From Sulfurimonas gotlandica GD1 (GTDB lineage: Bacteria; Campylobacterota; Campylobacteria; Campylobacterales; Sulfurimonadaceae): DNA of 64,000 bases. Position 1 is the first letter of the stretch. Each line of letters starts with the position of its first letter. This document shows positions 33,849 to 53,303 of this stretch, piece by piece. The notes under the pieces were generated by a model. It was given only the letters and a program-made list of their open reading frames with translations. It had not been told where the DNA came from and searched no databases. The translations under genes and the position numbers were made by a program. The DNA lies in NCBI RefSeq assembly GCF_000242915.1, contig NZ_AFRZ01000001.1:1984001-2048000 (forward strand). The letters are read 5' to 3'.

Positions 33849-33960
33849 AACAGAACCTTTTATATTTAATTAAAATATTTTATTGTATTTATTCTTAAAA
33901 GTTGATTTATGATATGCGAATACATAATATCGCTAAATTAAAACCTCATAAACTCTATAT

Positions 33961-34018: not shown

Positions 34019-34032
34019 ATGAATATACCAAC

Positions 34033-34981: not shown

Positions 34982-35091
34982 TTATACCGACCTTCATATC
35001 CTTCTATGATCTTTTTATTTTCTAAATATTCTACATCAACATCAAGCCATGTTTTATTGAGGTGTAAGTCAGTAGTATCTAATAGCCTCAT
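34975..35091 (-). pseudogene. 38-aa remnant of a second metallophosphoesterase N-terminus
   Basis: The frame starts MRLLDTTDLHLNKTWLDVD and ends KWRYG-like (…GYEGRYKW) at 34975. Its first 16 residues align with the start of the neighbouring phosphoesterase (MKILHTTDLHFNKKWFE), including the DxH metal motif. Nothing of the rest of the enzyme is present. It is a partial duplication inside the same operon, or a short peptide that is still translated. Confidence 0.6.
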
Positions 35092-35100
35092 ATTTTCATA

Positions 35101-35715: not shown

Positions 35716-35735
35716 CTAAATATCCTTTTTATTTT

Positions 35736-36041: not shown

Positions 36042-36044
36042 TTC

Positions 36045-36934: not shown

Positions 36935-37425
36935 ATCAGTTTCCTATTTGTATTTTTTACACGATTCCATGAAGTATCTAATTTTTCTAATCCATCCATC
37001 GAGGATAAAAAACTAGGTAGTTGATTCATATGGTTCCACGATATGTTTAAGCTTTTCAGCGAGAGTAACTTTGCTATATCAGGAGGAAGCTTTTCTATAT
37101 GGTTTGATGATAAGTCCAATGTATGCAAGTTAAATAAGTTACCTATAGATGAAGGGATAGACGATAATAAATTTTTTGAAATATTTACAGACTCTAAATG
37201 AATTAATTTTCCTATAGAGTTAGGAAGATATTCAATTCCTTTTCCTGATGCATTGATGCATTGTAAACTTATTAAAGCTTCTTCGTAAGTTTGATAGTTA
37301 TGAGTATTACAAATCTGCATAACATCAGTGACATTATATTTGTCTGCCCACTCTAATACTTCATAAACCCATTGACTGTTTAAATCACTGTCTGTGATTA
37401 AATTTTTTATTTGATTTTTTTTCAT
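36931..37425 (-). CDS. Leucine-rich repeat protein
   Basis: A 164-aa protein with four bacterial LRR units of about 23 residues: LPNSIGKLIHLESVNISKN, IPSSIGNLFNLHTLDLSSN, LPPDIAKLLSLKSLNISWN, LPSFLSSMDGLEKLDTSWN. LRRs form a curved protein-binding surface. A short non-repeat N-terminal domain precedes them (residues 1-65). No signal peptide, so it is probably cytosolic. It is first in the compact operon down to 34033. It may be a recognition part of the set, but that is inference. Confidence 0.85.
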   Translation of the reverse strand: MKKNQIKNLITDSDLNSQWVYEVLEWADKYNVTDVMQICNTHNYQTYEEALISLQCINASGKGIEYLPNSIGKLIHLESVNISKNLLSSIPSSIGNLFNLHTLDLSSNHIEKLPPDIAKLLSLKSLNISWNHMNQLPSFLSSMDGLEKLDTSWNRVKNTNRKLI

Positions 37426-37647
37426 TTTCTCTCCTTTGTCTTCACATACAAATCAGCTTCGAAATAATTTCGCGAAAGATGGTAAAAATGGGATAAATTT
37501 GTAAATTCATATAATTATGTAACAATATGAATCATTTATGAAGCTAAAAAGTATATTTATAGGGTCAAAACTGTGCTTAAACATGACTTGTAATGAAGAA
37601 GTTGGAATATTTTTATAAAACTATAAGGTCCTCTCAATAAACACTTA

Positions 37648-37735
37648 TATTTGGAACAAGTAAAGCTGTTATAAATCTTGTTCCACAAAGACCTGAATTT
37701 TGGAACAACAACTTTTTTGCTCCAAAACTTACATA
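37648..37735 (+). repeat. Cassette palindrome B
   Basis: TATTTGGAACAAG...CTTGTTCCACAAAG forms a hairpin around TAAAGCTGTTATAAAT (loop shared with copy A), followed by TTTTGGAACAACAAC and TTGCTCCAAAACTTACAT. Long form, about 88 bp. It lies in a gap of about 400 bases (37426-37841) in which I see nothing else. Confidence 0.7.
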
Positions 37736-37841
37736 TCAAGAGAATAAACGTAAAAATTTTACTTTGAATCGAAAATCACAAAAGATTCGTATTCTAGGTT
37801 GTGATATAATTCAAAATACTGAAATAGAGGGTTTTGATATT

Positions 37842-38018
37842 ATGACTTATGGAGAATATTATTACCGTGTTAAGTATGATATGAAACTTGTAAATGGAAA
37901 CTGGGTATCAAAACCAGCTTATATGAAAATCCCTCGAAGAATGTCTAGAAAAGATGCTGCCATTTATTACACTGAAAAACTTAGAAAGTATTGGGACAAT
38001 ATAAAGGAAAATAAATAA
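37842..38018 (+). CDS. Small conserved protein, MTYGEY family (copy 1)
   Basis: A 58-aa protein starting MTYGEYYYRVKYDMKLVNG. An upstream in-frame ATG (37764) exists, but the ATG at 37842 is chosen because a paralogue at 43488-43658 starts at the same residue and a GAGGG site lies nearby. The two paralogues share KYDMKL, KIP-R-MSR and YYT-K-R-YW. No known family is recognised. Both sit between palindromes, so they may belong to the mobile unit. Confidence 0.65.
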   Translation: MTYGEYYYRVKYDMKLVNGNWVSKPAYMKIPRRMSRKDAAIYYTEKLRKYWDNIKENK

Positions 38019-38027
38019 GTATTTTTC

Positions 38028-38059
38028 AAAAAAGTTCCAAAACCTACAGGTTTGATAAC
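38028..38059 (+). repeat. Cassette palindrome C (right arm only)
   Basis: AAGTTCCAAAACCTACAGGTTTGATAAC. It matches the right-hand arm of the family (GTTCCAAAAGGTACAGGTT). The left arm is missing or eroded. It follows the small MTYGEY gene by 9 bases. Confidence 0.55.
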
Positions 38060-38110
38060 TCTCAAATTACACTCTACCATGGTTCTTTTATAATAACTTG
38101 TGAAGGTCTA

Positions 38111-38614
38111 TTATTTTATCTTTTGTTTATTTAAAAATATTTTTTCACTGGCGATTGTGTGGTTAACTCTTGGCTTGCACCAAAAACTGTTTTGTTTGGA
38201 GTGTGGCTTTGAATTATCAACTCTTCTTAGTGAGCAACCTTCTTCAAATAAAGTAGATGTATCATTATGAAAATTTTTAAATTCTTTCCATTCGGAGCAA
38301 AGTACTCCTTTTTCTTTTAATGTTTGCCACCTATTGTAAAGTCTGCTATCACATAATCCATGCTTTATTTTATTAACACTAAGATTTTTATCTCTACAGT
38401 ACTGGCATCCTTTAGTATTACCAGATAGTAAATTAGATGATGAGACTATAGATGATTTTTTACATTTATTGCAAATCACATTCCACATTGCATGCGTATT
38501 ATTTACATGACTAAATTCCTTAATCAATAAATTCCCAAAAGTTTTATTGGTTAAATCTTTTCTTACACTCATATTATATTTCCTAAAAATTGTATGTATG
38601 TCGTGCTTAGGCAT
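38111..38614 (-). CDS. Phage-type zinc-ribbon protein (AP2/HNH-associated type)
   Basis: A 167-aa protein. The first part, KDLTNKTFGNLLIKEF...MWNVICNKCKKSSIVSSSNLLSGNTKGCQYC, matches the short domain with two CxxC pairs seen at the start of phage AP2/HNH homing-type proteins (DLTGxxFGxLxV...SCGC). It is followed by HGLCDSRLYNRWQTLK, also typical. A complete HNH nuclease domain is not visible, so it may be truncated or only a DNA-binding piece. Confidence 0.65.
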   Translation of the reverse strand: MPKHDIHTIFRKYNMSVRKDLTNKTFGNLLIKEFSHVNNTHAMWNVICNKCKKSSIVSSSNLLSGNTKGCQYCRDKNLSVNKIKHGLCDSRLYNRWQTLKEKGVLCSEWKEFKNFHNDTSTLFEEGCSLRRVDNSKPHSKQNSFWCKPRVNHTIASEKIFLNKQKIK

Positions 38615-38775
38615 TTCTTTTATTATAAACTATTGTACTGAAAAACTACTCGCTAACCTATTTAATATTAAGGATAGGCTTGTTCCTAAAAGAACAGATT
38701 TTTGAACTTAATCAATTTTTTAATTATAAAGTTTGAAGATGAAAATACTCGATGATGATTTGCTTAGTTATAAGA

Positions 38776-40059
38776 TTAAATATTATGTATAATTACCTTA
38801 TTCCGTCCAGTATCTTTAGCTTCATACAATGCTTCATCAGATACTTTAAGAAGTGCATTTATATCTATACTTTTACCATAGGCTATACCTAAGGATACTG
38901 TATATTTTAAACTTATATCATCTACTTTTATTTCATTATTTTCAAAATTACTACGTATCTTTTCAAATAAATGTTTTGTATCCTCTAGAGATATATCTTC
39001 AAGTAAAATACAATATTCTTCTCCACCAAACCTAGCCACTAAATCAGATGTTCTTAACGTTTTGTCTAAAATTATTGCTATTTCTTGAATAGCAACATCT
39101 CCAACATCATGACCATAAGTATCATTCACATTTTTAAAAAGGTCAATATCCAAGGTCGCTACGGCTACTTCTTTATCTTTACGTTGATTTTTATTAAGTA
39201 TTGCTTTACTAGATTCAAAGAAGTATCTTCTATTATAGGAACCTGTTAAAAAATCTTTATTTGCTAAATCCTTTGTTTGCTTGAAAAGTTCTAGGGTGTC
39301 TAAGTTTGAATGTACTCGCACATTTAATTCTTCAAATTTATGTGGTTTACTTATAAAGTCATTTGCACCTTCTTTAATGAAGTCCGATAAAATATTGAGT
39401 TCTTCTGAAGCACTAAGTGCAATAATTGATAAAACATCTTTATCATACTTTTGTCTTAACTTTATTGTTAGCTCAACCCCGTCCATATTTGGCATATTGT
39501 AATCTGTCAAAATCAAAGAAATATTATTATCAGGATTATCCATAATAGCAAGAGCCTCTTTACCATCTTCTGCTTCAAGTACATTAATACGTAGTTTTTC
39601 TAAGTCAGTTCTAAAGGCATTTCTAGAGACTTTAGAATCATCCACGACAAGAGCTGTTGTTTCATAATTACGTAAAACCTTCTTTACAAAATTTGATACA
39701 TACTCGATACTATTCATAGAGTCTTTTTTAGTGTAATCTAAAACATCTTTTTTTAATAATAAAGCTTTTACATCATCATTATCGACTGTTGATAAAACAA
39801 TAGTAGGTATTTTATGTGTACTTGTTAATAATACTGCTTGCCCTGATTTACAATCTGGTAAGTTTAAATCAACAACAGCTACATAAATATCTTTATGCTC
39901 TTTTCTAATAATCTTACTAGCTTCAGTAAAAGTTTCAGCTTTGAGTATCTCAAAATTATGTACACACTTACCTGCAATACATCGAAAAATTTCACTTTCT
40001 AAAGCATTTAAAATTGTTTTACTATCATCTATTAATAATATTTTAATTGTTTTTTTCAT
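38776..40059 (-). CDS. REC-REC-GGDEF response regulator (diguanylate cyclase)
   Basis: A 427-aa PleD-like protein. REC 1 about residues 5-120 (phosphorylatable Asp in VVDLNLPD), REC 2 about 130-255 (LTDYNMPNMDG with DD in VVDDSKVS), GGDEF about 265-427 with the intact site RFGGEEYCILL near 346. PleD-type proteins dimerise through REC domains upon phosphorylation and make c-di-GMP. It lies between palindromes C and E and next to the HD-GYP gene at 40333, an opposing enzyme pair. Confidence 0.92.
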   Translation of the reverse strand: MKKTIKILLIDDSKTILNALESEIFRCIAGKCVHNFEILKAETFTEASKIIRKEHKDIYVAVVDLNLPDCKSGQAVLLTSTHKIPTIVLSTVDNDDVKALLLKKDVLDYTKKDSMNSIEYVSNFVKKVLRNYETTALVVDDSKVSRNAFRTDLEKLRINVLEAEDGKEALAIMDNPDNNISLILTDYNMPNMDGVELTIKLRQKYDKDVLSIIALSASEELNILSDFIKEGANDFISKPHKFEELNVRVHSNLDTLELFKQTKDLANKDFLTGSYNRRYFFESSKAILNKNQRKDKEVAVATLDIDLFKNVNDTYGHDVGDVAIQEIAIILDKTLRTSDLVARFGGEEYCILLEDISLEDTKHLFEKIRSNFENNEIKVDDISLKYTVSLGIAYGKSIDINALLKVSDEALYEAKDTGRNKVIIHNI

Positions 40060-40151
40060 ATATTCTCATAATCACAAGATTTTTACTACTATCATTAGTA
40101 TACAGCTTAAATGTTTAATGTTAAATTTTTCATGCGATAAAAAGTTTAAAT

Positions 40152-40221
40152 ACCTCTAGGTTTTGGAACAACTATTTCGCAATATTGAAAAATGAAGGAA
40201 AAGTTCCAAAAGGTACTGGTT
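40152..40221 (+). repeat. Cassette palindrome E
   Basis: ACCTCTAGGTTTTGGAAC and GTTCCAAAAGGTACTGGTT are inverted arms with a mostly unrelated 30-base centre. Short form, 70 bp. It lies between the GGDEF and the HD-GYP genes. Confidence 0.75.
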
Positions 40222-40332
40222 GTGGAGATTTCTAGACCATAAAATAAACTGTGTAAACCAACTTATTACCCATTAATCACTTGGTATTTTAGGATATATA
40301 TGGCAGTTCCAGTATTCTGAGCTAAATTATGA

Positions 40333-42528
40333 TTATATTACATCTTTATATTTATCACGTATAGCTATAAACTTCTCTTTATTATCTAAAAATAAATCAG
40401 CGAGTTTAGGATCAAAGTGTTTTCCTTTTTCTTCTTCAAAAAGATTAAAAATACGCTCATCATCCCAAGCTTTTTTATAACATCTATCACTACCCAGTGC
40501 ATCAAAGACATCTGCTATTGCAGTGATTCTTCCATAAATATGAATTTTTTCTCCAACAATAGCATTTGGATATCCAGAACCATCCCATTTTTCATGATGA
40601 CTATACGAAACCATCGCCGCAGCTTTTAAAATTGGTCTTTTTGATTCTTTTAATATGTTATATCCTATCTTAGCATGACTTCTCATAACTATCCACTCAT
40701 CATCATCAAGTTTACCAGGTTTTTTAAGTATGCTGTCTGGAATAGCCACTTTTCCAATATCGTGCATAGGTGAAGCTGAATATAATAATTCTGCTTTTTC
40801 AGTGCTTAGACCTGCTAAAAGTGCTAAAGTTCTTGAATACTCTGCTACACGTTTTACATGGAAACCTGTCTCTTTAGAACGGCTCTCTCCAACTTCACCC
40901 ATTTTATGAATAATCTCTTTTTGAGTATTCTCCATCTCTGTATGCATATTGACTATGTCAGTTACATCATGTCTAATAGCTAGGTATTCAGTAATATTTT
41001 CATTATTATCAATAATAGGAATTATTGTACTTTCTACGTTATAAGTACTTCCATCTTTTGCTCTATTTTTAAGTTGTCCATGCCACACTTTACCATCAGT
41101 TATCGTTTTCCATAAATCTAAATAAAGTTCTTTAGGATTATCTGGATGTTTAACTAAACTATGTGATTGCCCAATTAGTTCTTCTTTAGAGTAGCCTGAT
41201 ATTTCACAGAACTTATTATTCGCATAAGTGATTTTTCCTTTTGTATCTGCACGAGATAGTATATTGCTTTCATCTATTGCTCTTTGATATTCTTGTGAAA
41301 TCTTATATGCTTCACTAAAATTATCATTTGATATATTAAGGTTTGTTTCTAACTCTGATTTGATATTTTCTAACTCTGTAATATCTGTTCTGATACCGAT
41401 ATACTCTACTATATTGCCATCATAATCAACTATTGGATTAATAACAGTATTTACCCAATAGTAGCCACCATCTTTAGTTTTATTTTTTACTTTTCCAAAC
41501 CATGGTTTTTTATCTTCAATTGTTTTCCACATTTCTTCAAAAGTAGATTTAGGCATATCAGGATGTCTAACCATATTATGATTTTTACCAACAAGCTCTT
41601 CTATTTTATATCCAGAAATGTCACAAAATTTATCATTCACAAAAGTTATAATTCCTTTTGTATTTGTTTTTGAAACAATACTACTTCTGTCTACTGCATC
41701 TTTATAATCATTAAGAATTTGTTGTCTACAAAGTATATCTCTATTTCGTCTGTCAGATTTAATTTCAATATCAGCTTTTAAAATAAGTTCTTCTGCATTA
41801 AAAGGTTTGTGTATAAAATCAGATGCACCTGCTTTTAAACTATCTCTAACAAGTTCAGCTGTACTAGAACCTGATAACATAATAACAGGTATGTCAGAAA
41901 AATTTTTGTTTTTTCTTATTCTTTTTAAAAGTTCCAGACCATTTATTCCAGGTAACTGCATGTCTAAAATGATTAGGTTTACATGATGAGATTCTAACTT
42001 TTCCAATCCAACTTCAGCACTTATGGCATGGATTATATTGTAGTTTCTTACTCCTAAAAGCTTACCAATATATGTTTGTAAAAAACTAGAATCATCTACA
42101 ACAAGTATGTTGCTGTTTTTATTAAGTTCTAATTCTTTAATTGTTTTGCTTATATCAGATACACCACTATTAAAGTATTTATCCTTTACTATATAGTCTA
42201 AAATACCATTTTTAAAAAGGTCTTCTCTTTGTTCAACATCTGTTTCTGCAGTTAGAATAATTATTTTTGCTTTTGTTAGATACTCAGTTTCATCCAGTAG
42301 TTTTAAACCTGAACCATCAGGTAAATTTAAATCAAGTAAAACAAAATCATATTCTTTTAGCTTTACCTTATCTGTAGCTTCTTTTACAGTAAATGCTTGG
42401 TCACATGAATAATGAAACCTTGATAATGTCTTTAGTACAGAATTGTTAATAAATTCGGTATCTTCAACAATCAATATTTTATATTTTTCATTACTGGGTA
42501 ATTCAATTAGAGTATCACAATTTAGCAT
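40333..42528 (-). CDS. REC-REC-PAS-PAS-HD-GYP response regulator (c-di-GMP phosphodiesterase)
   Basis: A 731-aa protein. REC 1 about 12-130 (LLDLNLPDGSG), REC 2 about 138-260 (ILDMQLPGINGLELL), PAS/PAC about 275-395 and 420-520 (both with G-x-I-T-x-x-N-x-K-F-C-x-I-S-G-Y), HD-GYP about 545-731. The HD-GYP site is complete: HDIGKVAIPDSIL near 588 and HHEKWDGSGYPN near 642-652. It should degrade c-di-GMP in answer to two phosphorylation inputs and a PAS ligand. No kinase is adjacent. Confidence 0.92.
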   Translation of the reverse strand: MLNCDTLIELPSNEKYKILIVEDTEFINNSVLKTLSRFHYSCDQAFTVKEATDKVKLKEYDFVLLDLNLPDGSGLKLLDETEYLTKAKIIILTAETDVEQREDLFKNGILDYIVKDKYFNSGVSDISKTIKELELNKNSNILVVDDSSFLQTYIGKLLGVRNYNIIHAISAEVGLEKLESHHVNLIILDMQLPGINGLELLKRIRKNKNFSDIPVIMLSGSSTAELVRDSLKAGASDFIHKPFNAEELILKADIEIKSDRRNRDILCRQQILNDYKDAVDRSSIVSKTNTKGIITFVNDKFCDISGYKIEELVGKNHNMVRHPDMPKSTFEEMWKTIEDKKPWFGKVKNKTKDGGYYWVNTVINPIVDYDGNIVEYIGIRTDITELENIKSELETNLNISNDNFSEAYKISQEYQRAIDESNILSRADTKGKITYANNKFCEISGYSKEELIGQSHSLVKHPDNPKELYLDLWKTITDGKVWHGQLKNRAKDGSTYNVESTIIPIIDNNENITEYLAIRHDVTDIVNMHTEMENTQKEIIHKMGEVGESRSKETGFHVKRVAEYSRTLALLAGLSTEKAELLYSASPMHDIGKVAIPDSILKKPGKLDDDEWIVMRSHAKIGYNILKESKRPILKAAAMVSYSHHEKWDGSGYPNAIVGEKIHIYGRITAIADVFDALGSDRCYKKAWDDERIFNLFEEEKGKHFDPKLADLFLDNKEKFIAIRDKYKDVI

Positions 42529-42735
42529 TTTAAGTCCTAATTTATCTATTCGCTTATTTTAAAATAAACTTATCACACTTATATAATATTATGATATTCT
42601 ATCTTTTATAACTTAAAAATAATTCATGTAGTTTATTTATTTTTTTTAAAACTCTGTAAATACTGTATTTAGTGCTATTATCTAGTCTACCAAGTTAGCT
42701 ACAGTATTCGAAGCCATACTAAATTTAAACCTCAT

Positions 42736-42811
42736 AACCTCTAAGTTTTGGAGCAAATTTTAGTAACGGAAATATTGTTCCAAATAGAGTTGAATTTTGG
42801 AACAATATTTT
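42736..42811 (+). repeat. Cassette palindrome F
   Basis: AACCTCTAAGTTTTGGAGCA, then the conserved centre TTTTAGTAACGGAAATATTGTTCCAAATAG, then TGAATTTTGGAACAATATTTT. The inner arms give a 15-bp stem (AAATATTGTTCCAAA). The outer right arm is lost. It starts 5 bases after the recombinase stop, so it may also end that transcript. Confidence 0.75.
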
Positions 42812-42816
42812 ATGGG

Positions 42817-43380
42817 CTACTTCTTTTTAGCTACATCTTTAATAGCTCTATAAATCGTATTACGAGCAACATGAAAAAACTTTGAAAGCCATGCAACAGA
42901 CTTTCCTTTTTCGTGCTGTTTGCATATGACCTTTTTATCCTTGAAAGATAAAATAGCTCTTCTTCCAAACTGAACACCTTTTCTTTTTGCAGCCTCAATA
43001 CCTTCTTTAACACGTTCATTTATTAAATCACGTTCAAACTCTGCAATAGCACCTAACATGGTAAATAATAATCTTCCTGCTGGTGTTGTAGTATCAATGT
43101 TCTGTTGAATGACTTTGAGATTAACATTTTTATCTTCTAAAAACTTAGCAATATTCTGAAGGTCTATTACAGACCTTGCTAATCTATCAAGCTTTGTAAT
43201 AAATAGGATATCTCCCTCTCGAACGAAATCCATCATGACATTAAACTGTTGACGATCAGCTTTATTTTTACCAGATTTTTTTTCAGAGAAAATCTTTACA
43301 CAGCCAGCATCTTTAAGTTGATCAATTTGATTCTCAAGATTTTGGCTGGAAGTTGAAACTCTTGCATAACCTACATACAT
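42817..43380 (-). CDS. Serine recombinase, resolvase/invertase family
   Basis: A 187-aa Tn3-resolvase/Hin-type enzyme. The catalytic serine is in YARVSTSSQ (S9), and the arginine-rich active site follows as KLDRLARSVIDL with the conserved TKLDRLAR. The dimerisation helix is TMLGAIAEFERDLINERVKEGI, and a C-terminal helix-turn-helix (about residues 148-185) contains VAWLSKFFHVARNTIYRAI. It cuts and rejoins DNA at short palindromic-core sites. Palindrome F follows its stop immediately. Whether it acts on the island's repeats is a guess. Confidence 0.94.
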   Translation of the reverse strand: MYVGYARVSTSSQNLENQIDQLKDAGCVKIFSEKKSGKNKADRQQFNVMMDFVREGDILFITKLDRLARSVIDLQNIAKFLEDKNVNLKVIQQNIDTTTPAGRLLFTMLGAIAEFERDLINERVKEGIEAAKRKGVQFGRRAILSFKDKKVICKQHEKGKSVAWLSKFFHVARNTIYRAIKDVAKKK

Positions 43381-43444
43381 AATAAATCCTTTTTATTGAA
43401 CTTACTATTTATCGCATATATTATGAAGAATTGTAAAGGGTAGG

Positions 43445-43465
43445 TTTGCTCCACAAGGTACAGGC
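43445..43465 (+). repeat. Cassette palindrome G (right arm only)
   Basis: TTGCTCCACAAGGTACAGGCT: the right-hand arm of the family, identical to copy A over GCTCCACAAGGTACAG. The left arm is absent. It lies 22 bases after the stop of the small gene at 43488. Confidence 0.55.
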
Positions 43466-43487
43466 TAGAAGAATATAAATATTGTAT

Positions 43488-43658
43488 TTATATGTCAAAC
43501 TTCTTCCAATACTCTCTAAATTTAAGTGTGTAATATTTATCGGCCTCTTCTCTAGACATTCTAATTGGTATCTTTATATTTGGCTTATTAGCCTTCCATA
43601 CACCATCTTTTAATTTCATGTCATACTTAACTTGATAGTGATACTCGCCATATGTCAT
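43488..43658 (-). CDS. Small conserved protein, MTYGEY family (copy 2)
   Basis: A 56-aa protein: MTYGEYHYQVKYDMKLKDG, then IKIPIRMSREEADKYYT and REYWKKFDI at the C-terminus. It is a clear paralogue of the plus-strand gene at 37842-38018, about 55-60% identical by eye. Because both copies stay open and conserve the same residues, they are probably real genes. Function unknown. Confidence 0.65.
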   Translation of the reverse strand: MTYGEYHYQVKYDMKLKDGVWKANKPNIKIPIRMSREEADKYYTLKFREYWKKFDI

Positions 43659-43750
43659 GTAAATTCCTATAAAAAAATTCAGATGAATTATAACATTTCT
43701 CTATTATTTACAATTGTATCTGTCGTTATATGTATTTTTGAACAATTATA

Positions 43751-43779
43751 CTTGCTCCACAAAGTACAGGTTTAGTAAC
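43751..43779 (+). repeat. Cassette palindrome H (right arm only)
   Basis: CTTGCTCCACAAAGTACAGGTTTAGTAAC, right-hand arm of the family. It runs directly into the IS-end-like repeat at 43780. Confidence 0.55.
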
Positions 43780-43805
43780 TGTCTAGTTTATAAGGGACAT
43801 TCCAC
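43780..43805 (+). repeat. IS-end-like 26-bp repeat, copy 2
   Basis: TGTCTAGTTTATAAGGGACATTCCAC, one base different from copy 3. In this orientation its outer (TGGAATG) end faces right. It joins palindrome H without spacing. Confidence 0.7.
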
Positions 43806-43848
43806 ATCATTGAAATCTATAGAAATACCTTCTATTGTAAGGGTTAGG

Positions 43849-44001
43849 ATGACAAAAAAATATGCCATAAATGCTTATGCAGCATGTGATGGAGTGTTAA
43901 GTGATAAAAAATTGAATAGATTGGCAAAAATAATCACCAATATGCAATCAATGGAGAAGCAAATCACAAAGCTCTCAAAAACAAAAGTAAAGTTGCTATA
44001 G
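43849..44001 (+). CDS. Possible small protein or gene remnant
   Basis: A 50-aa frame (MTKKYAINAYAACDGVLSDKKL...) with TAAGGG before the ATG. It is basic and helical without a known family. Other short frames follow with no gap (for example 44002-44097), which suggests the debris of a longer gene. From 44098 to 44197 I see only an AT-rich leader. Confidence 0.3.
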   Translation: MTKKYAINAYAACDGVLSDKKLNRLAKIITNMQSMEKQITKLSKTKVKLL

Positions 44002-44197
44002 ATGCAAGTCTTATCAAGAGCTAAGCAAGTAAAAGTGGGCTTGTGGAAGGACAGAGTAGAAGAAATAGAGTGTTTAGATGAAGCTAGGAATGAATAGTTT
44101 ATTTATGAAGAACTAATTTACCATAAGCTATGATATTACTACTACTAAAACAAAAGATATGTGTGAATAATATGAGTGATATTACAAAGGAAGACAG

Positions 44198-44680
44198 ATG
44201 AACATTGATATAGATGGTGATAACATTAATTTAGAAGAGTCTCAAGAAGATTTACAACGGATGAAAAACCTTTATTATAATAATGATATAGATGCAGACA
44301 AGATTGACTTAGATAAGTATTCAGAAGATTTATATAAATTTTATTTTTTTCTTACGAAGCGACATTATCCAGATGAAATATTTCAAGTTGAAGGTATTAG
44401 TGAGTCGGAACTAAGAGAGATAACAGAAGAAAGTATAAAAAATAATAAAAAGGATATCTATTATGCATTTAAAGTTATAAAAACACTTCAGAATGCTGCT
44501 AGAATACTAGAAGAAGAAGCTTATACTCCTGAAATGAGAAACTATTTTGCTGTTACATATAGATATTTATATGAGTGTTTTTCTTTTGATAGTGCAAATG
44601 AAATTGATGAAAAAGAGTATGAACTATTTAAATATAATTTCAAAGAATTTAATGATTCGCATGAGGGTATATATTTTTAA
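44198..44680 (+). CDS. Hypothetical acidic protein
   Basis: A 160-aa, strongly acidic, helical protein without membrane segments. It starts MNIDIDGDNINLEESQEDL and has a weak internal similarity (NNDIDADKIDLDKYSEDLYK repeats the opening pattern). AAGGAAG precedes the ATG. Acidic single-gene cargo can be an immunity or anti-defence protein, but nothing specific supports this. It sits between two IS-end-like repeats (43780 and 44794). Confidence 0.6.
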   Translation: MNIDIDGDNINLEESQEDLQRMKNLYYNNDIDADKIDLDKYSEDLYKFYFFLTKRHYPDEIFQVEGISESELREITEESIKNNKKDIYYAFKVIKTLQNAARILEEEAYTPEMRNYFAVTYRYLYECFSFDSANEIDEKEYELFKYNFKEFNDSHEGIYF

Positions 44681-44773
44681 CAATATCAAAGGCGAATTTA
44701 ATTATAAAGTAACGAAAGAGCCTAAGAAAGAGAGTGTAAATCTAACTGTGTAAACCCACCTTCTATTCCTAAA

Positions 44774-45376
44774 CTACTTACAGGTTGTGGAGCTGTCTAG
44801 TTTATAGGGGACATTCCACTTATCTCTATCTTGAAACTTGTCTGGATGATTTAAATGTGCAGCTTTTTTGTATGCTTTTTTTAATTGCAAAAGTGTGTAA
44901 TCGTGTGATAAACTAAAAAGTACTAAACTCCTTTCTAGTTGAGTGTTTATATAGTTTTTGAACTCATCTTCAAACGACTGCTGTTGTTCTTGAAACTGCT
45001 CTTGCTGACTTTCTTCATATGAGTATCTTGTTTTTTCATTTTTTTGTTCACCATTAATTTTAGTATTTAGCTTTATTGAGTTGTATATATTGTCTAAAAC
45101 AAAAACTAGCACAAGTAAAAATATAGATAATATTAAAAAACTTTTGTGTGCAAAAAGGTAGTTATATGCAATCAATCCAAGTAAAACAACTATCGTTACT
45201 TCAGGAATATGATAAGTTCTTTTCAAAAAATGTTTATTATATATTGCATGAATAAAAATATATGTAACACTAAGTAAAGATAGAATGTTTACTTTCTCAA
45301 TAAATAGCTCAATCTCCATATAGGTAAGTATACGAAAAATAATAGCATTTAAGAATAGTATTATATATATTTGCAT
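44774..45376 (-). CDS. Membrane J-domain protein, truncated in the J-domain
   Basis: A 200-aa protein. About four hydrophobic segments (residues 1-100), then a polar linker rich in Q/E, then a C-terminal J-domain that starts YTLLQLKKAYKKAAHLNHPDKF with the essential HPD. Right after HPDKFQDRDK the sequence enters the repeat at 44794-44819 and adds 14 foreign residues (WNVPYKLDSS...). The J-domain lacks its last helices, so Hsp70 stimulation is doubtful. A GGAG ribosome site precedes the start. It ends the gene cluster 49470-44774. Confidence 0.8.
   Translation of the reverse strand: MQIYIILFLNAIIFRILTYMEIELFIEKVNILSLLSVTYIFIHAIYNKHFLKRTYHIPEVTIVVLLGLIAYNYLFAHKSFLILSIFLLVLVFVLDNIYNSIKLNTKINGEQKNEKTRYSYEESQQEQFQEQQQSFEDEFKNYINTQLERSLVLFSLSHDYTLLQLKKAYKKAAHLNHPDKFQDRDKWNVPYKLDSSTTCK
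44794..44819 (+). repeat. IS-end-like 26-bp repeat, copy 3
   Basis: TGTCTAGTTTATAGGGGACATTCCAC. It follows a partial palindrome arm (CTTACAGGTTGTGGAG, 44777-44792) directly. Outer end to the right, where it cuts into a J-domain gene. Together with copy 1 (31510) it bounds 13.3 kb in inverted orientation. Confidence 0.75.
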
Positions 45377-45465
45377 GATTACTCCTTTTTCTTGGAAGTA
45401 AGTTTATTAAATTTATATGACACGTTATGTCACTGAAAATATTCTAATTTTTCCCCAAATAATTT

Positions 45466-46824
45466 TTATCTGTTGTCTAGTTTATTAGAGGCTGTATATT
45501 TTTTATCTAGAATATAATAGTATTTCCTTTTGTTTGTTGCAACATTTAGAATAATTGCTCTTTTGTACCCATCTGGACGACTATATATCCATCCAAGTGG
45601 CAATGGATTATCCATTAAGTTTTGCCATCTCATCTGAGCTAGCACTTTTTCTTTGTTTGTCAAAAATATTGGTTTTGCAAGAGACTTTTTATTTTTATGT
45701 ATAAACTCAAAAGTATCAAGTGAATTTTCCATATGATTCGCATATTCATAGTTATGCAGAATATTGCCTAAAAACTCATTGCACTTTGTGTCACCAATTT
45801 TATTTTCAAGTTGACGGATATTTTGCATTGCAGCTATAAGTTCAACATTCATTTCGCGAAATAAATCTATATACGGAATATTATTCTCGCTTACACTCCT
45901 TTGAAATTCATCAATAAAAAGTGTAATAGGCCTTGAGTTATCTCTAATAAGTAGTCTTTTATAAAGTATGTTCATAACTGACAATGTAATGTTTTCATCA
46001 AATGAATCAGCACGTAATATAACAATACTACCTCTCTCAAGTAGTTTTTTCAACTCAGTATCTCCATCAAGACTAATTTGAGAAAAGTTTTGTAAAAGAC
46101 TTCGCAACGTGAACAACACACCTCCAGAACCTGCTGCAGGGTTGTCTTGGTCAATATCGGAATAAAACATTTTTATATTTTTAGAAGCTGCGGAAAAATC
46201 ATTTGCAAACTGAGCTATTAAATATAAATCGTTTTTACTTATTCCATATTTATACATATTTGCTATGTTTTTAATCTCTAACATTCTGCTTATTTTTTCA
46301 CAGGCATCAATAAATTCCTTTACAGAAGAGTAGGATGACAGTATTTCATTAATTGATTTGGGATTAAAAGTATAATTAAACTGAATGTTTTGTTTGTTTC
46401 TAAGTAATTCCTCCAGATTTTTACCTATTGAAAAAACATCGTATATCTGACCTGCAATATTAAGCGCCGATGATATCCAAAACCTATCTTTTGTTTCTCC
46501 GTGAACGTTGCTTAGTGTGTCCAGAAATAGAGATCTAGAAATATTTTCAAATATATTTATATTATCTCCCCATGGCACTCCAATTTCTTTGACATCTTTA
46601 ATTCTTCCATGTTTACTTGCTATTGCTTTTACATGCGAATGTAAATTTCCTTTAATATCAACTATCAACATCCCATAATTTTCTTGAATTCTATTAGATA
46701 TATTAGGCAGCATAAATGATGTTGTTTTTCCACATCCTGTCTCACCAATACATAATGCATGTCTAAAATCATTTTTAACTATTGGTGTTTCTTCTGGAGT
46801 ACTCTCTTTAATAAATCCTGCCAT
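45466..46824 (-). CDS. VirD4/TraG-like ATPase without membrane anchor
   Basis: A 452-aa P-loop ATPase. Walker A is GETGCGKT at residues 27-34, close to the N-terminus; Walker B is TLFIDEF near residue 305; a Q-containing sensor stretch (AAMQNIRQLENKIGD) follows. Order and motifs match VirD4/TraG/TraD coupling ATPases, but the two N-terminal TM helices of that group are missing. The membrane part may be supplied by the neighbour proteins. No relaxase or other conjugation gene is nearby. AAAGGAC ribosome site before the ATG. Confidence 0.8.
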   Translation of the reverse strand: MAGFIKESTPEETPIVKNDFRHALCIGETGCGKTTSFMLPNISNRIQENYGMLIVDIKGNLHSHVKAIASKHGRIKDVKEIGVPWGDNINIFENISRSLFLDTLSNVHGETKDRFWISSALNIAGQIYDVFSIGKNLEELLRNKQNIQFNYTFNPKSINEILSSYSSVKEFIDACEKISRMLEIKNIANMYKYGISKNDLYLIAQFANDFSAASKNIKMFYSDIDQDNPAAGSGGVLFTLRSLLQNFSQISLDGDTELKKLLERGSIVILRADSFDENITLSVMNILYKRLLIRDNSRPITLFIDEFQRSVSENNIPYIDLFREMNVELIAAMQNIRQLENKIGDTKCNEFLGNILHNYEYANHMENSLDTFEFIHKNKKSLAKPIFLTNKEKVLAQMRWQNLMDNPLPLGWIYSRPDGYKRAIILNVATNKRKYYYILDKKYTASNKLDNR

Positions 46825-46890
46825 ATTCTGTCCTTTTAGAGGTTTAATATGGATATATTACAGGATATGGATGACAATATTTGTCATATG

Positions 46891-48552
46891 TTATATATTC
46901 GAACTAGTATGATCTATCTGTTTGAACTGCTCCTCTTCTGAAAGATCTTTTATATATATTAAATCAGGATTTGAACGATATGGGCTATTAAGTATGGACG
47001 CCTTAGTCTCATCGGTTATTTCATTATAAATCTTTAAGTTTTTTGATCTAACGAGATAGTTGTAATTCTGTGATTTTAAATCTTCGTTAAACTTTTCCGC
47101 AACTTGTGAATCAATACTATCAACGTCAAAAAGAGATAAGTTGTTGAGATAAATTTTTTTCTTAAACTTATCCGCTACTTTTGAATCGACGCCATGCGCG
47201 CCATTACGTGAATGTGTGATTTTAAACATATCGCCATCCGCAATTTTCCATTTCTGCAATTCAGGGCCTATCAAGGCCAATGAAATAGAACCAATCAGGA
47301 TAAACATCACGTGTCCAGTTTGATAATTGTAAAGAAATTTCGAAATTGGTCTTGCAACAATTCCACCAACGACAATCACAAATAAAAAGTATAAAGGCAC
47401 TGCAACAACTATCTCAAAAATAAATTCTAAAAAATCCCAAAATCCATGAATGTGACTAAAGTCTTCAATCGTAGAACTTATAATAGGAAGTAAAGTAACA
47501 AAAAGAAACGCTAACATCATTTTCGCACTATATATGTTTCTCAAAATCAACACAACAAGCGTAAAAACAATAAGGACAAGCAAACTTGGTAAAAAGGTTT
47601 GAGGCGTCAGCACAGATAAAAAAAGCGCCATACCCACATATAAGAACAAAGTTCCAGCTACGTAATTTATTCCATAAGACACTATGTTACGCTCTTTATT
47701 TAAAGGCAAAAGCAACATGGTGTCTTCGAAAAATTTAAACAGATAGCTCACTACCGTTACGGATATCACGCTTGTAATGACGCCAAACACCATTGAATAC
47801 GTTTCAATATCATAATATACGCTTTTATTCACATAAAAAAACGCAATCAGGAAAACAGATACAAACACTAAAATAGAGACGAACCACCTAAGTCTTAAAA
47901 CATTTTTTATCAACTCCAATTCATCATGAAAAACAGCCAAATATCTAATAAAAAGATTTCCTAATGAAACCAACAAGATGCCACTTACCTGTAAAAAAGC
48001 CCAAACAGAAAAGGATATTTCGGTTATAAATTCTATTACATAGTATGTTTTCAATATATTCAACCCAATCATTACCATCAAAGGAATAATAAATAAATAT
48101 ATTTTTAAAAAAGGAAGTTTAAACTTTAGCTTCGTTTTGTTAAACACAATAAATGTATAAACACTATTTATCACAAGTAAAGCAATGGAAACATATTCAG
48201 AATAAAGCAATACGGTATAGTCGATATTTACGTTAAGACCCGTTTCTACGCTTTCAGAAAATCTATTTAACGATATGAATATAGTTGGAATAACAAGCAA
48301 TAGTCCCCAACCAAGAGCTGGACCACCATATACCAAAAGCGCTATCATTATTATAGATATAATAAGGTACTGTATCTCCATCTTAAACGTCGTGTCAAAT
48401 GATATTGTGCCGGCATACATACTAAAAGAAAACCATGCAAACATTACCGCTAAATAAACTAAGTTAACTTTTTTTAAGAAGCTGCTTGCATGCATCTCAT
48501 TGTTTGCAATAGTAGTAAAATACTTTTCTCTCTCTAAATCGGTTACTTTCAT
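46891..48552 (-). CDS. Large polytopic membrane protein of unknown family
   Basis: A 553-aa protein with about 12 hydrophobic helices in residues 25-440 and a soluble C-terminal tail of ~110 residues (WKIADGDMFKITHSRNGAHG onwards). The tail contains two repeats of a short pattern (HGVDSKVADKFKKK and DSIDSQVAEKFNED). It is no transporter family that I can name. It lies 66 bases upstream of the ATPase gene on the same strand. It may be the membrane platform for that ATPase. Confidence 0.65.
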   Translation of the reverse strand: MKVTDLEREKYFTTIANNEMHASSFLKKVNLVYLAVMFAWFSFSMYAGTISFDTTFKMEIQYLIISIIMIALLVYGGPALGWGLLLVIPTIFISLNRFSESVETGLNVNIDYTVLLYSEYVSIALLVINSVYTFIVFNKTKLKFKLPFLKIYLFIIPLMVMIGLNILKTYYVIEFITEISFSVWAFLQVSGILLVSLGNLFIRYLAVFHDELELIKNVLRLRWFVSILVFVSVFLIAFFYVNKSVYYDIETYSMVFGVITSVISVTVVSYLFKFFEDTMLLLPLNKERNIVSYGINYVAGTLFLYVGMALFLSVLTPQTFLPSLLVLIVFTLVVLILRNIYSAKMMLAFLFVTLLPIISSTIEDFSHIHGFWDFLEFIFEIVVAVPLYFLFVIVVGGIVARPISKFLYNYQTGHVMFILIGSISLALIGPELQKWKIADGDMFKITHSRNGAHGVDSKVADKFKKKIYLNNLSLFDVDSIDSQVAEKFNEDLKSQNYNYLVRSKNLKIYNEITDETKASILNSPYRSNPDLIYIKDLSEEEQFKQIDHTSSNI

Positions 48553-48628
48553 GCTTATAGATCTACCTTATAATTTAAATGTTTGAATTGATTTTTTTTG
48601 TTGTGTTTGTGTAGTGTAACGAAGAGAA

Positions 48629-49258
48629 TTACTCTTCGTTGTTCGCAGGAACTTTTTGTCTAGCAAATTTTTGTTTTAGGTTCAAAAATTTTTCTTCTAA
48701 CAAGTCGATATTTCTCTTTATAGTCTCTTTTATTTCAGAAAAATCTTTATGTATAAGATATATAACTATGAAAACTGGTATTAGCATCATTAAAAACACA
48801 GTTTTAGATATCCAAAAAACTAGTCGAAAAACCTGTTTCACTGATACAAAAAATCCGGCAGAGGTACCTGTATTTAAACCTATAGTATTGTTTCGACTTT
48901 GTTCTTCCCTAACAGCTGCGTCTTGGGCCATTATAGCGCTTTCTTCGGCATATCTCTGCTCTGCTTTTGCTTCTTTTATCTCTCTGTTAACCTTATCTAT
49001 TTCTTCTGCTTCAGCATAACTTACACCTTTAATGATGGCAGTAAGGAATATGCTAGCTGACTCAGCAACGACATAAACTCCAAGCCAAGCAATACCAGCA
49101 GTCAACCAATAAAACCAGCGTAATATTTCATGCCTTGCAAAAGGAGATAATGCATACGCAACAGATCCAATTATAAGTATTCCAACATATACTATTAGCC
49201 ATTTGTCAACGCCATCAATAATCGACTGGGTTCTAATCCCTATTTCTTTTGTACTCAT
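48629..49258 (-). CDS. Membrane protein with central coiled coil
   Basis: A 209-aa protein. Two hydrophobic segments near the N-terminus (about 20-40 and 48-78), a charged helical middle (AEEIDKVNREIKEAKAEQRYAEES), one or two further TM segments (about 145-170), then a basic/acidic helical C-terminus. No known family. Its start overlaps the small gene upstream by 4 bases. Confidence 0.65.
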   Translation of the reverse strand: MSTKEIGIRTQSIIDGVDKWLIVYVGILIIGSVAYALSPFARHEILRWFYWLTAGIAWLGVYVVAESASIFLTAIIKGVSYAEAEEIDKVNREIKEAKAEQRYAEESAIMAQDAAVREEQSRNNTIGLNTGTSAGFFVSVKQVFRLVFWISKTVFLMMLIPVFIVIYLIHKDFSEIKETIKRNIDLLEEKFLNLKQKFARQKVPANNEE

Positions 49259-49470
49259 TTTATAACTACTCCTGTTCCGCCGCTGCTATGTGCATCTTTT
49301 TCAATAGCTCTGTAAGCATCATCTCTTGACCTGAAACTTCCAATTCCCGTCCCGCCTCCAAAAGTTCCTCTCTTCGCTCTATACTCACCATTGTAATACT
49401 CTATTGAGTATTTGTCGTTTGGTATTGAACCATTTTTACAACTTACATTAAATGTTTCTGTTGCTGCCAT
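49255..49470 (-). CDS. Small glycine-rich protein (DUF2188-like fold?)
   Basis: A 71-aa soluble protein: IEYYNGEYRAKRGTFGGGTGIGSFRSRDDAYRAIEKDAHSSGG, split over residues 23-66. The alternation of a short beta start, S-x-R-D-x-A and A-I-x-x-A recalls DUF2188-type mini-domains, a weak resemblance. AAAAAGGAG precedes the ATG. First gene of the cluster down to 44774. Function unknown. Confidence 0.65.
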   Translation of the reverse strand: MAATETFNVSCKNGSIPNDKYSIEYYNGEYRAKRGTFGGGTGIGSFRSRDDAYRAIEKDAHSSGGTGVVIK

Positions 49471-49576
49471 TTTATATCTCCTTTTTTATTTTTGTTTAAC
49501 GATAGTAATCAGTTTTAAAGCCAATTAATATTAATTAACGTCAATTAAAAGTATATATAAAAAATATAACAAAATA

Positions 49577-49592
49577 TGTTACAAAAAGTCAC
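49577..49592. promoter_or_regulatory. Candidate regulator site 1 (TGTTAC-n5-GTCAC)
   Basis: TGTTACAAAAAGTCAC, 107 bases upstream of the 49470 start in an AT-rich promoter region (49471-49626). Similar spaced half-sites occur at 50985-51001 and 51726-51743. It may be bound by the adjacent OmpR-type regulator; similarity is loose. Confidence 0.3.
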
Positions 49593-51033: not shown

Positions 51034-51729
51034 ATGAAAATTTTGATTGTAGAAGACGACTTTTTGATAGTCGCACAGATTCGAGAGTGTTTAGAGCGAC
51101 TAAACCATGAAGTTATAGCTACATTTGACGATGCCAATCTAGCTTTGGCGTTTGTAGAAAACAATAGACCGGACTTTGTTTTTATGGATATCGAATTAAA
51201 CGGTCCGTTAGATGGCATACAGTGTGCCAATGCTCTAAGAAACAGATACTCTATTCCATCCATATTTGTAACTTCACACCATGAAACTGACATTTTAAAC
51301 GAGTCAATGGCAGTAGCTCCCTTGAACTTTCTGCCAAAACCATTTGAAGATAGCAACATAGAAGCCGTTGTCGCTCTTGCCGCCATAACTCTAAAACTTA
51401 ATCCACTTAACGATACTCCAAACATCGTTCAAATACAAGAGTATGAATTTAATTTTGAATATGATTCATTAAAAAAAGATGGTCAAATAATAAAACTTAC
51501 GGATAAAGAGCTACTACTTGCTTCACTTTTGTTCAAAAATGTTGGAAACATTGTAAGTAAAGAAGAGATAAGTAAATATGTCTATGAAGGCGATCTAACT
51601 ACAGATAGTTCTCTAAGACGACTTGTCAGCAGAACAAGAGAAAAACTTCCTGGACTCAACATTCAATCAGAATCAAAACAGGGTTATTTTTTAACAAAAA
51701 ACAAAACAAGCAACATTAAAAGTTTGTGA
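51034..51729 (+). CDS. Response regulator, REC + OmpR-type winged helix
   Basis: A 231-aa regulator. REC about residues 1-120: acidic pocket VEDDFL, phospho-acceptor Asp in FVFMDIELNGPLDG, Thr/Ser in FVTSHH and Lys in LPKPFED. Trans_Reg_C about 135-225: KLTDKELLLASLLFKN...SSLRRLVSRTREKL...SKQGYFL. It would bind direct repeats and activate nearby promoters. Divergent from the HisKA_2 kinase. Confidence 0.92.
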   Translation: MKILIVEDDFLIVAQIRECLERLNHEVIATFDDANLALAFVENNRPDFVFMDIELNGPLDGIQCANALRNRYSIPSIFVTSHHETDILNESMAVAPLNFLPKPFEDSNIEAVVALAAITLKLNPLNDTPNIVQIQEYEFNFEYDSLKKDGQIIKLTDKELLLASLLFKNVGNIVSKEEISKYVYEGDLTTDSSLRRLVSRTREKLPGLNIQSESKQGYFLTKNKTSNIKSL

Positions 51730-51743
51730 CAAGAGATGTCATA
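51726..51743. promoter_or_regulatory. Candidate regulator site 3
   Basis: GTGACAAGAGATGTCATA overlaps the end of the regulator gene and lies 44 bases before the 51-aa gene. It shares TGTGACA with site 2. Weak evidence. Confidence 0.25.
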
Positions 51744-51786: not shown

Positions 51787-51942
51787 ATGATTAAACTTTT
51801 ACTACTGGCTGTCGCTGTCGCTTTTGTTTTTGGGGTAATTGCATACGATAACGATAAAGTCGTCATAGACACTCAAAAAGCAAAAAGCATTATGGAAAAA
51901 AGTAAAAAAGCCATTGAAGATAACGTTGAGATAAAAAAATGA
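51787..51942 (+). CDS. 51-aa membrane or exported peptide
   Basis: MIKLLLLAVAVAFVFGVIAYDNDK is a hydrophobic helix or signal anchor. It is followed by a charged helix (KAKSIMEKSKKAIEDNVEIKK). AAAAAGGAT precedes the ATG. Its stop overlaps the start of the TPR gene (ATGA), so it is translated with it. No family recognised; length is short for automated callers but coding signals are good. Confidence 0.7.
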   Translation: MIKLLLLAVAVAFVFGVIAYDNDKVVIDTQKAKSIMEKSKKAIEDNVEIKK

Positions 51943-53303
51943 GTACTATAATATATAGCCCAAAAATAGTTGCCAATGAATTACTTCTTACTGAAGACGA
52001 AAGCATTGAATTACTTGGCGGCTTTATAGAACAAGCATACGGCTTTAAAAATGAAATCTATGAGAGCTTAGCTGAAAATGCTGAAATGGAAAATTTCTAT
52101 TCTCTCACAGATAAATTGTATAGTGGAGCAAAGATCTTGTCTATTAGAAATATGCAAGAATCCTTGGAAAGCATAAAGAGCTCTACCCAGAGAGCTCAAA
52201 TCATGCAATCATTGGAAATATTTTATGCACAGATTGATGAATTAAAAAATAATTTTGTCAAAGAATCAGATATTAAAATAGAAAATAAAGTCGAAAATAA
52301 ATCAAATAAACATAACTTAAAAGAATCGTATTCGACTATCGAAGAAGTTGAAGAAGATGTACAAAAGATTTTAAAGATAGCCAGAGAGTCAAATGATGAT
52401 TCTGACTGGAAACTGTATGCATCACTGGTATTGGATACTATGCATAAATATGATAATTTCGATAAAGCTATAGCAGTTTCAGAAGAATTTTTTTCAATTG
52501 CTAAGGATGTTTCTGTCATTTATGAATCAGCAGTAATAAATTATGCTCAAATGAAAAAAATGAATAATGAACTAGATGAAGCAATCGTACTTTACAAGGA
52601 AGCTTTAGAGCTTATGACGAAAAGAGATGCTGGTGCTGAAGCTATCATATTTGAAACAAAAATACTTATTACGATCTACATTCATAAGGGTTATATAAAA
52701 GAAGCCGAAAGCTTAGAAGAGACATACATACAGTGGTGTAAGAGAAGTTTTAGAACAAGTATATATTACTCTAAAAAGCTTATCGATTTAGCAAATGTCT
52801 ATAAATATAATAAATACTTTAGCAGAGCAATTAAGCTTTACGAAGAGGCTATAGAGATTTTAAGAAACGATTCTGAAAAAATATCACATGACATGAATGC
52901 TACAACAAATAGTTATACTTCTTTATTAAGAACTCTTGCTGATTTATATCAATCTACTGATCAAAATGATAAAGAATTGAAAATTTATATAGAGCTTGCA
53001 CAAGTGGTAGACATCTTGTATCAAGAACTTCCAGATGAAAATCTAGCGATCTATCTACACTCATTTATTCTTTTAGGGAATCAGTATTACATGCAAACAC
53101 AATTTTATAAAGCTATTAAAGTATTTGAAAAGCGATATAGCATTACAAAAGAATTATATTCAACACATCATTTAAAAGGGAAAGATACACACCTGCAGAG
53201 TATATCATTTTTGGCTAAAGTATACAGAGGTTATCAAATGCCCGAAGAAGCTGCAATGTTAGAACAAGAAGCAGCTGAAATTTCTACTAATTTCACAGAG
53301 TGA
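51939..53303 (+). CDS. TPR protein with degenerate Hpt-like N-terminus (copy 1)
   Basis: A 454-aa cytosolic protein. Residues about 1-110 (ELLLTEDESIELLGGFIEQAYGF...LTDKLYSGAKILSI) look like a four-helix Hpt domain in which the phosphorylatable His is replaced by Asp (TDKLYSGAK against HxLKGxA). Residues about 150-450 are TPR-like helices (LDEAIVLYKEALELM, FSRAIKLYEEAIEIL, FYKAIKVFEKRYSI). A second protein of the same design is encoded at 54128. It may bind signalling partners. A 46-bp piece of this gene recurs at 56250. Confidence 0.75.
   Translation: MSTIIYSPKIVANELLLTEDESIELLGGFIEQAYGFKNEIYESLAENAEMENFYSLTDKLYSGAKILSIRNMQESLESIKSSTQRAQIMQSLEIFYAQIDELKNNFVKESDIKIENKVENKSNKHNLKESYSTIEEVEEDVQKILKIARESNDDSDWKLYASLVLDTMHKYDNFDKAIAVSEEFFSIAKDVSVIYESAVINYAQMKKMNNELDEAIVLYKEALELMTKRDAGAEAIIFETKILITIYIHKGYIKEAESLEETYIQWCKRSFRTSIYYSKKLIDLANVYKYNKYFSRAIKLYEEAIEILRNDSEKISHDMNATTNSYTSLLRTLADLYQSTDQNDKELKIYIELAQVVDILYQELPDENLAIYLHSFILLGNQYYMQTQFYKAIKVFEKRYSITKELYSTHHLKGKDTHLQSISFLAKVYRGYQMPEEAAMLEQEAAEISTNFTE
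52377..52422 (+). repeat. 46-bp sequence duplicated at 56250-56295
   Basis: ATAGCCAGAGAGTCAAATGA...GTATGCAT is base-for-base the same at 56250-56295 in the same orientation. Here it is inside the TPR gene; there it is outside any gene. Confidence 0.85.

What the first reader, a model, noticed from the sequence alone, without database searches (positions are those of the whole stretch)
44774..49470. Candidate undescribed membrane system: anchor-less VirD4-like ATPase with two orphan membrane proteins and a membrane J-protein
Five co-directional genes: a 71-aa soluble protein, a coiled-coil membrane protein, a ~12-TM protein with a repeated C-terminal tail, a VirD4/TraG-like ATPase whose Walker A starts at residue 27, and a membrane J-domain protein. 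No relaxase, mating-pair or secretion genes are near, so this is not ordinary conjugation. A coupling ATPase that borrows its membrane platform, with an Hsp70 co-chaperone, would suit a protein-export or DNA-translocation machine, possibly a defence or contact system.
Basis: inference. Interest (0 to 1): 0.75.

Follow-up and report, generated by a model that had tools for sequence, protein, structure and literature searches.

The report
Operator-marked soluble VirD4-like ATPase locus
The five genes are not one membrane machine: the conserved element is a soluble ATPase related to conjugation pumps, present without any VirB-type secretion system, tied to a sensor-regulator gene pair and sharing a DNA switch site with conflict-type genes, while its membrane neighbours are strain-specific and the chaperone gene is broken by a mobile element.

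Summary
Five co-directional ORFs exist as described, but they are not one conserved system. (1) The 452-aa ATPase is a real VirD4/TraG-like P-loop ATPase with no membrane anchor. Seven relatives (42-69% identity, one a fragment) share this, and VirB4 (PF03135) is absent from all eight carrier genomes. (2) The 71-, 209- and 553-aa proteins have no detectable relative in 151 family genomes; pooled, they gave only spurious low scores in 399 order genomes. They are not conserved with the ATPase. (3) The 'J-protein' is a remnant: its J domain is cut just after HPD by an exact 25-bp terminal repeat of the genome's own IS3-family element. (4) The conserved partner was missed: a 7TM histidine kinase plus OmpR-type regulator just upstream, co-occurring with the ATPase in 6 of 7 carrier genomes (Fisher p about 3e-9) and adjacent in four relatives. 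(5) A 15-bp palindrome, TGACA-N5-TGTCA, lies 36-48 nt before the ATPase start in all eight orthologues (0-3 mismatches). G000 has only five exact copies, three here. In relatives it precedes conflict-type island genes (STAND/DUF4062, MoxR-like AAA, AAA-M41 protease, cas2 once). Best reading: a tightly regulated soluble translocase in a conflict regulon; substrate and regulator unproven.

The parts
45466..46824 (-). Anchor-less VirD4/TraG-like ATPase, 452 aa; Walker A at residue 27, Walker B LFIDE, conserved R in 'FRE'
   Evidence: Pfam T4SS-DNA_transf 5e-11 and TraG-D_C 5e-5; orthologues and alignment
46872..46886 (-). Palindromic site TGACAAATATTGTCA, 47 nt upstream of the ATPase start, just after the 553 stop
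45418..45432 (-). Palindromic site TGACATAACGTGTCA, 41 nt upstream of the J-gene start; directly followed by TATAAAT
44774..45376 (-). Membrane J-protein remnant (4 hydrophobic segments, J domain cut after HPD)
   Evidence: Pfam DnaJ 0.005, profile positions 8-35 of 63 only; NCBIfam DjlA 3e-4; junction
44794..44818 (-). Exact 25-bp terminal inverted repeat of the resident IS3-family element (TGGAATGTCCCCTATAAACTAGACA) that truncates the J gene
   Evidence: intact copies with OrfA/OrfB in L054
49627..50910 (-). 7TMR-DISM / HisKA_2 histidine kinase, conserved companion of the ATPase
   Evidence: Pfam; co-occurrence; adjacency in relatives
51034..51729 (+). Response regulator: receiver + Trans_reg_C winged helix
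   Evidence: Pfam; orthologues 54-64% identical beside HK and ATPase in L005, L007 and L008
50986..51000 (+). Imperfect copy of the site (TGACAAAAAAAGTTA) between HK and RR
   Evidence: better copies at the same place in G013, G049, G055, G048
51727..51741 (+). Exact site TGACAAGAGATGTCA at the 3' end of RR, 197 nt upstream of the TPR gene 51939-53303
   Evidence: also at the RR 3' end in G009 (L104)
46891..48552 (-). 553-aa orphan polytopic membrane protein (about 12 TM)
   Evidence: no family; no relative
48629..49258 (-). 209-aa orphan coiled-coil/TM protein
   Evidence: no relative
49255..49470 (-). 71-aa orphan soluble protein, overlapping 209 by 4 nt
   Evidence: no relative
49567..49581 (-). 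Weak copy (TAACATATTTTGTTA) 96 nt upstream of the 71-aa gene; may be chance
   Evidence: 2 mismatches, shuffle P=0.023

Best explanation
The unit is a soluble, probably hexameric, FtsK/HerA-superfamily translocase (a VirD4-type motor without its membrane domain). It is encoded as its own transcription unit behind a 15-bp palindromic operator and is functionally tied to a divergent 7TM histidine kinase / OmpR-type regulator pair. It sits in variable islands whose genes share the operator and look like conflict (anti-phage or stress) genes. Most likely the operator keeps the ATPase silent until a signal, then the motor pumps or remodels nucleic acid (less likely protein) in the cytoplasm as an effector or effector helper. 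Shown: ATPase motifs, lack of anchor, absence of VirB4, co-occurrence with HK/RR, operator position and rarity, and its sharing with island genes in relatives. Inferred: hexamer, repression, substrate, defence role, and which regulator binds. The 71/209/553 genes are strain-specific neighbours and the J gene is a casualty of an IS insertion.
For: ATPase motifs and lack of anchor in the orthologues plus ten distant homologues. VirB4 PF03135 in 0 of 8 carrier genomes. HK in 6 of 7 ATPase-clade genomes against 1 of 144 others, p=3e-9; adjacency in G013, G049, G055, G048. Site 36-48 nt upstream in all eight ATPase orthologues, 0-3 mismatches, five at shuffle P<=0.003. Five exact sites in 2.95 Mb, three in this 6.3 kb; 6 of 7 in G139 within one 45-kb stretch with two such ATPases. 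In five genomes without the ATPase 15 of 16 sites lie inside ORFs, whereas in ATPase genomes intergenic sites precede STAND/DUF4062, AAA_5, FGase and cas2 genes and the AAA-M41 unit.
Against: Function is inferred from domains and company only. The HK/RR is missing from G139, the closest ATPase relative (69%), and from G097/G105, which still have the site, so the RR may not be the binder. The G009 ATPase and HK lie on different contigs. The site is poor upstream of the G139 and G009 ATPases (2 and 3 mismatches; P=0.06 and 0.28). PADLOC's mad8 hit (2e-12) is partly a generic P-loop signal, since the same model hits an AAA-M41 protein. The motif was first seen by eye in these promoters.
Confidence: 0.5

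Rival explanations
1. One reading: ATPase, 553, 209, 71 and the J-protein form one membrane export or contact machine.
For: Co-directional, closely spaced genes; the J gene and the ATPase both carry the exact operator, and a weak copy precedes the 71-aa gene.
Against: 553/209/71 absent from every relative that has the ATPase; ATPase and J are separate transcription units behind their own sites; J domain truncated by an IS end.
Confidence: 0.07
2. Orphan coupling-protein remnant: a decayed leftover of a conjugative element that lost its T4SS.
For: Best Pfam match is T4SS-DNA_transf; distant relatives sit on Arcobacter-type plasmids; IS ends and a resolvase nearby.
Against: Catalytic motifs intact in the seven full-length orthologues (the six relatives at 42-69% identity); conserved operator and HK/RR company; anchor missing in the whole family, not in one lineage; no VirB4 in eight genomes.
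Confidence: 0.13
3. The HK/RR is the regulator: a dedicated two-component switch that binds the palindrome and turns the ATPase on in response to an envelope signal. (A variant of the best explanation, not exclusive of it.)
For: Site in the HK/RR intergenic region in the window, G013, G049, G055 and G048; HK/RR-ATPase co-occurrence.
Against: Exact sites persist in G139, G097 and G105 islands without this HK; OmpR-type regulators usually bind direct repeats (general knowledge).
Confidence: 0.3
4. A WYL- or S24-type repressor, encoded elsewhere, binds the palindrome and holds a defence regulon (including the ATPase) off, as BrxR/CapW do. (A variant of the best explanation, not exclusive of it.)
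For: WYL genes in six relatives' ATPase neighbourhoods, directly behind the ATPase in G097; BrxR sites are inverted repeats with a 5-bp spacer (PMC9122601, PMC9122589) and CapW sites overlap the -10 (PMC9122588); an S24 repressor in G082 has the exact site 30 nt upstream.
Against: No WYL or S24 gene in the loci read from G000; its whole genome was not searched for them.
Confidence: 0.35

Closest known systems
VirD4/TraG type IV coupling proteins (PF02534, PF12696)
   Same: RecA-like motor domain with the TraG-D_C region; Walker A/B conserved
   Different: No N-terminal membrane domain; no VirB4 in the genome; own operator; two-component company
HerA/FtsK-superfamily ATPases of defence systems (PADLOC HerA; MADS mad8)
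   Same: Soluble pumping-type ATPase; weak profile matches (mad8 2e-12, HerA 0.008)
   Different: No partner of those systems adjacent; the mad8 match is partly generic
BrxR/CapW WYL-repressed defence islands (PMC9122601, PMC9122589, PMC9122588)
   Same: Inverted repeat in the promoters of island genes, with the 5-bp spacer reported for BrxR; WYL genes in several related islands
   Different: Half-sites here are short (5 bp conserved) against 10-11 bp in BrxR; the binder here is unidentified; no WYL gene near the window locus
MoxR-vWA / STAND conflict systems (Kaur et al. 2020, PMC7159879)
   Same: Relatives' islands carry MoxR-like AAA genes, STAND and TPR proteins
   Different: VirD4/TraG not mentioned there; no MoxR-vWA pair was found at the window locus

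Membership tests
VirD4/TraG coupling protein of a T4SS | T4CP motor domain | tested here: met
   PF02534 42.5 bits against cut-off 20.1; PF12696 23.6 against 22
VirD4/TraG coupling protein of a T4SS | N-terminal transmembrane anchor | tested here: not met
   Walker A at residue 27, no TM segment, family-wide
VirD4/TraG coupling protein of a T4SS | VirB4-type ATPase in the same genome | tested here: not met
   PF03135 0 of 8 carrier genomes
VirD4/TraG coupling protein of a T4SS | Relaxase or relaxosome nearby | tested here: not met
   None among Pfam-checked window proteins; not every window ORF was scanned and relaxases were not searched genome-wide
J-domain co-chaperone | HPD motif | tested here: met
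   sequence ...NHPDK
J-domain co-chaperone | Complete J domain (helices I-IV) | tested here: not met
   match covers profile 8-35 of 63, then IS terminal repeat
MADS (mad8) defence system | mad8-like ATPase | tested here: inconclusive
   2.3e-12 but the same model also hits an AAA-M41 protein
MADS (mad8) defence system | other mad genes beside it | tested here: not met
   no mad hit in the other module proteins
BrxR/CapW-type WYL regulon | 5-bp-spaced inverted repeat in the promoter | tested here: met
BrxR/CapW-type WYL regulon | WYL regulator that binds it | tested here: inconclusive
   present in several relatives' islands, not in the G000 loci read

The most novel reading that the evidence does not exclude
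A previously undescribed operator-defined conflict regulon, probably of Campylobacterota: one palindrome, TGACA-N5-TGTCA, co-controls anchor-less VirD4-like translocases, a 7TM two-component pair, AAA-M41 proteases, MoxR-like AAA genes, STAND proteins and, in one genome, a cas locus, so that this class of VirD4-like motors works as an inducible cytoplasmic defence effector rather than in secretion.
Probability: 0.33. Interest if true: 0.72.

Novelty: new variant of a known kind. Interest (0 to 1): 0.5.

Why it matters
VirD4-like ATPases are usually read as conjugation or secretion parts. A family that lacks the anchor, lives without VirB4, and shares a rare operator with conflict-type genes would show such motors recruited for another job. 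The operator gives a sequence handle for finding the rest of the regulon, which makes the role testable.

Tried and rejected
Relatives of the ATPase and 553 by the search for related loci in genome and viral contigs: none. 553/209/71 in plasmids: none. The two extra order-level hits to the pooled 71+209+553 query (E 2e-4, 4e-4) run through stop codons and were rejected. AlphaFold of ATPase and 553 from single sequences failed (pLDDT 34 and 42.5), so no fold search was run. PDB sequence search gave no significant match. The 71-aa protein and the 201-aa membrane protein upstream of the G139 ATPase are not similar by BLASTP. PADLOC '1TM-TIR' for the 209-aa protein (1e-4) covers only its C-terminal TM/coiled-coil part and was not taken as homology. 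The sigma-70 scan is no richer than shuffles (41 against 38), so the -35/-10 reading is by eye. Literature searches for MADS/mad8, orphan VirD4 and HerA-ClpP gave no matching system.

Full report
Observation. The ATPase matches PF02534 and PF12696 above their curated cut-offs. Its Walker A starts at residue 27, it has no TM segment, and the open frame is only 463 aa, so no anchor is hidden upstream. An alignment with six full-length orthologues and ten distant homologues keeps Walker A, the Walker B 'DE', the 'R' of FRE and a downstream Q, and none of them carries an N-terminal anchor.

Among 151 family genomes the ATPase has orthologues in G139 (69%), G013 (57%), G009 (51%), G049 (49%), G055 (48%) and a fragment in G048; at order level G259 (42%) joins. 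The 553-, 209- and 71-aa proteins match only the window's own genome in those 151. A pooled query in 399 order genomes added only two hits that run through stop codons. Plasmid searches for all three, and viral and genome contig searches for 553, found nothing.

The J-protein is a remnant. The J-domain match stops at profile position 35 of 63. The frame after ...HPDKFQDRDK is an exact 25-bp repeat (44794-44818) that occurs about twenty times in the genome. It forms the two ends of elements of about 1.3 kb with an OrfA (HTH_Tnp_1) and an OrfB (rve), i.e. an IS3-family element. The last 14 residues of the ORF therefore come from IS-end sequence.

The conserved company is a two-component pair. 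Just upstream lie a 7TMR-DISM/HisKA_2 kinase and a divergent receiver + Trans_reg_C regulator. Close relatives of the kinase occur in only six of 151 genomes at E<=1e-60, plus one cut by a contig edge in G049. Six of these seven are ATPase-clade genomes; the seventh, G007, has a shortened kinase and no ATPase. Fisher p=3e-9, without correction for relatedness; the six genomes span five genera. ATPase and HK/RR are neighbours in G013, G049, G055 and G048, on the RR side there but on the HK side in the window. In G009 they are on different contigs, and G139 lacks the kinase.

A shared operator. Reading the spacers showed a palindrome, TGACA-N5-TGTCA, upstream of the ATPase, upstream of the J gene and in the HK/RR spacer. 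It was found by eye, so these cases are not independent evidence. Tests after the fact: in all eight ATPase orthologues the best match is 36-48 nt before the start codon (mismatches 0,0,0,1,1,2,2,3; five at shuffle P<=0.003). G000 has five exact copies in 2.95 Mb, three of them in this 6.3 kb; the other two lie in coding sequence. In G139 six of seven exact copies lie in a 45-kb island with two such ATPases. In five same-genus genomes without the ATPase, 15 of 16 copies lie inside ORFs. In loci around the ATPases, exact or one-mismatch sites 25-80 nt before a start were found 30 times against 0-3 for eleven control palindromes, although part of those loci had been picked for the site.

What else carries the site. 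In relatives: DUF4062 STAND proteins (G105), a MoxR-like AAA_5 gene with a ~500-aa partner (G013, G097, G139), the AAA-AAA-M41 protease or its partner gene (G048, G139), an ankyrin-type protein and an inositol-phosphatase gene (G139), N-formylglutamate amidohydrolase (G097), an S24 repressor (G082) and cas2 in G188. Neighbourhood clustering also shows WYL regulators in six genomes, calcineurin-type phosphoesterases, and ClpP-like partners of more distant ATPases. This is the company of conflict or defence islands, but no complete known system was recognised at a carrier locus.

Not a conjugation part. VirB4 (PF03135) is absent from all eight carrier genomes; the control search rings in Caulobacter. 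Membership in the T4SS coupling-protein class therefore fails on anchor and apparatus, while 'works like a VirD4-type motor' stays likely.

Mechanism. Shown: intact ATPase motifs, soluble form by sequence, own promoter-proximal palindrome, HK/RR co-occurrence, island company. Inferred: the palindrome is a repressor site (it sits at the presumed core promoter, and BrxR sites also have a 5-bp spacer: PMC9122601, PMC9122589), the ATPase is a hexamer that moves nucleic acid, and its use is against invaders or stress. The binder is open: RR, WYL or S24 type. No genome search was left to look for WYL/S24 in G000.

Limits. Structures could not be predicted without an alignment. Operator P-values for the window itself are post hoc.

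Noticed in passing
window 33900-44820: Many degraded IS ends and related repeats (families D3-D7, two copies of the IS3-family end at 43780-43804 and 44794-44818) around small cassettes: metallophosphatase 34116-34637, HSDR_N/Tin-like 35101-35715, LRR protein 36931-37425, resolvase 42817-43380. Looks like an IS-driven variable region.
   Followed up: partly
L132 (G188) 6636-6968 and 12604-13599: The same palindrome lies 45 nt upstream of cas2 and 138 nt upstream of cas6 in one genome; CRISPR genes may belong to the same regulon there.
   Followed up: partly
L028 2913-5897, L129 11274-14018, L029 12398-15142, L091 286-3105: A ~914-994-aa protein with two AAA modules (AAA_2 + AAA) fused to an FtsH-type M41 peptidase recurs near these ATPases in four genomes, paired with a 171-210-aa protein of unknown family in three of them.
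   Followed up: partly
L002, L092, L093, L101, L107: In a more distant branch the VirD4-like ATPase gene is preceded by a ClpP-like protease gene.
   Followed up: partly
L031 11253-11267 (G139): One copy of the palindrome is embedded in a longer inverted repeat (AACTAGT..TGACATAAGCTGTCA..ACTAGTT), so the full operator may be longer than 15 bp.
   Followed up: no
window 51727-51741 and L104 2709-2723: An exact palindrome sits at the 3' end of the response-regulator gene in two genera; its target gene is unclear.
   Followed up: no
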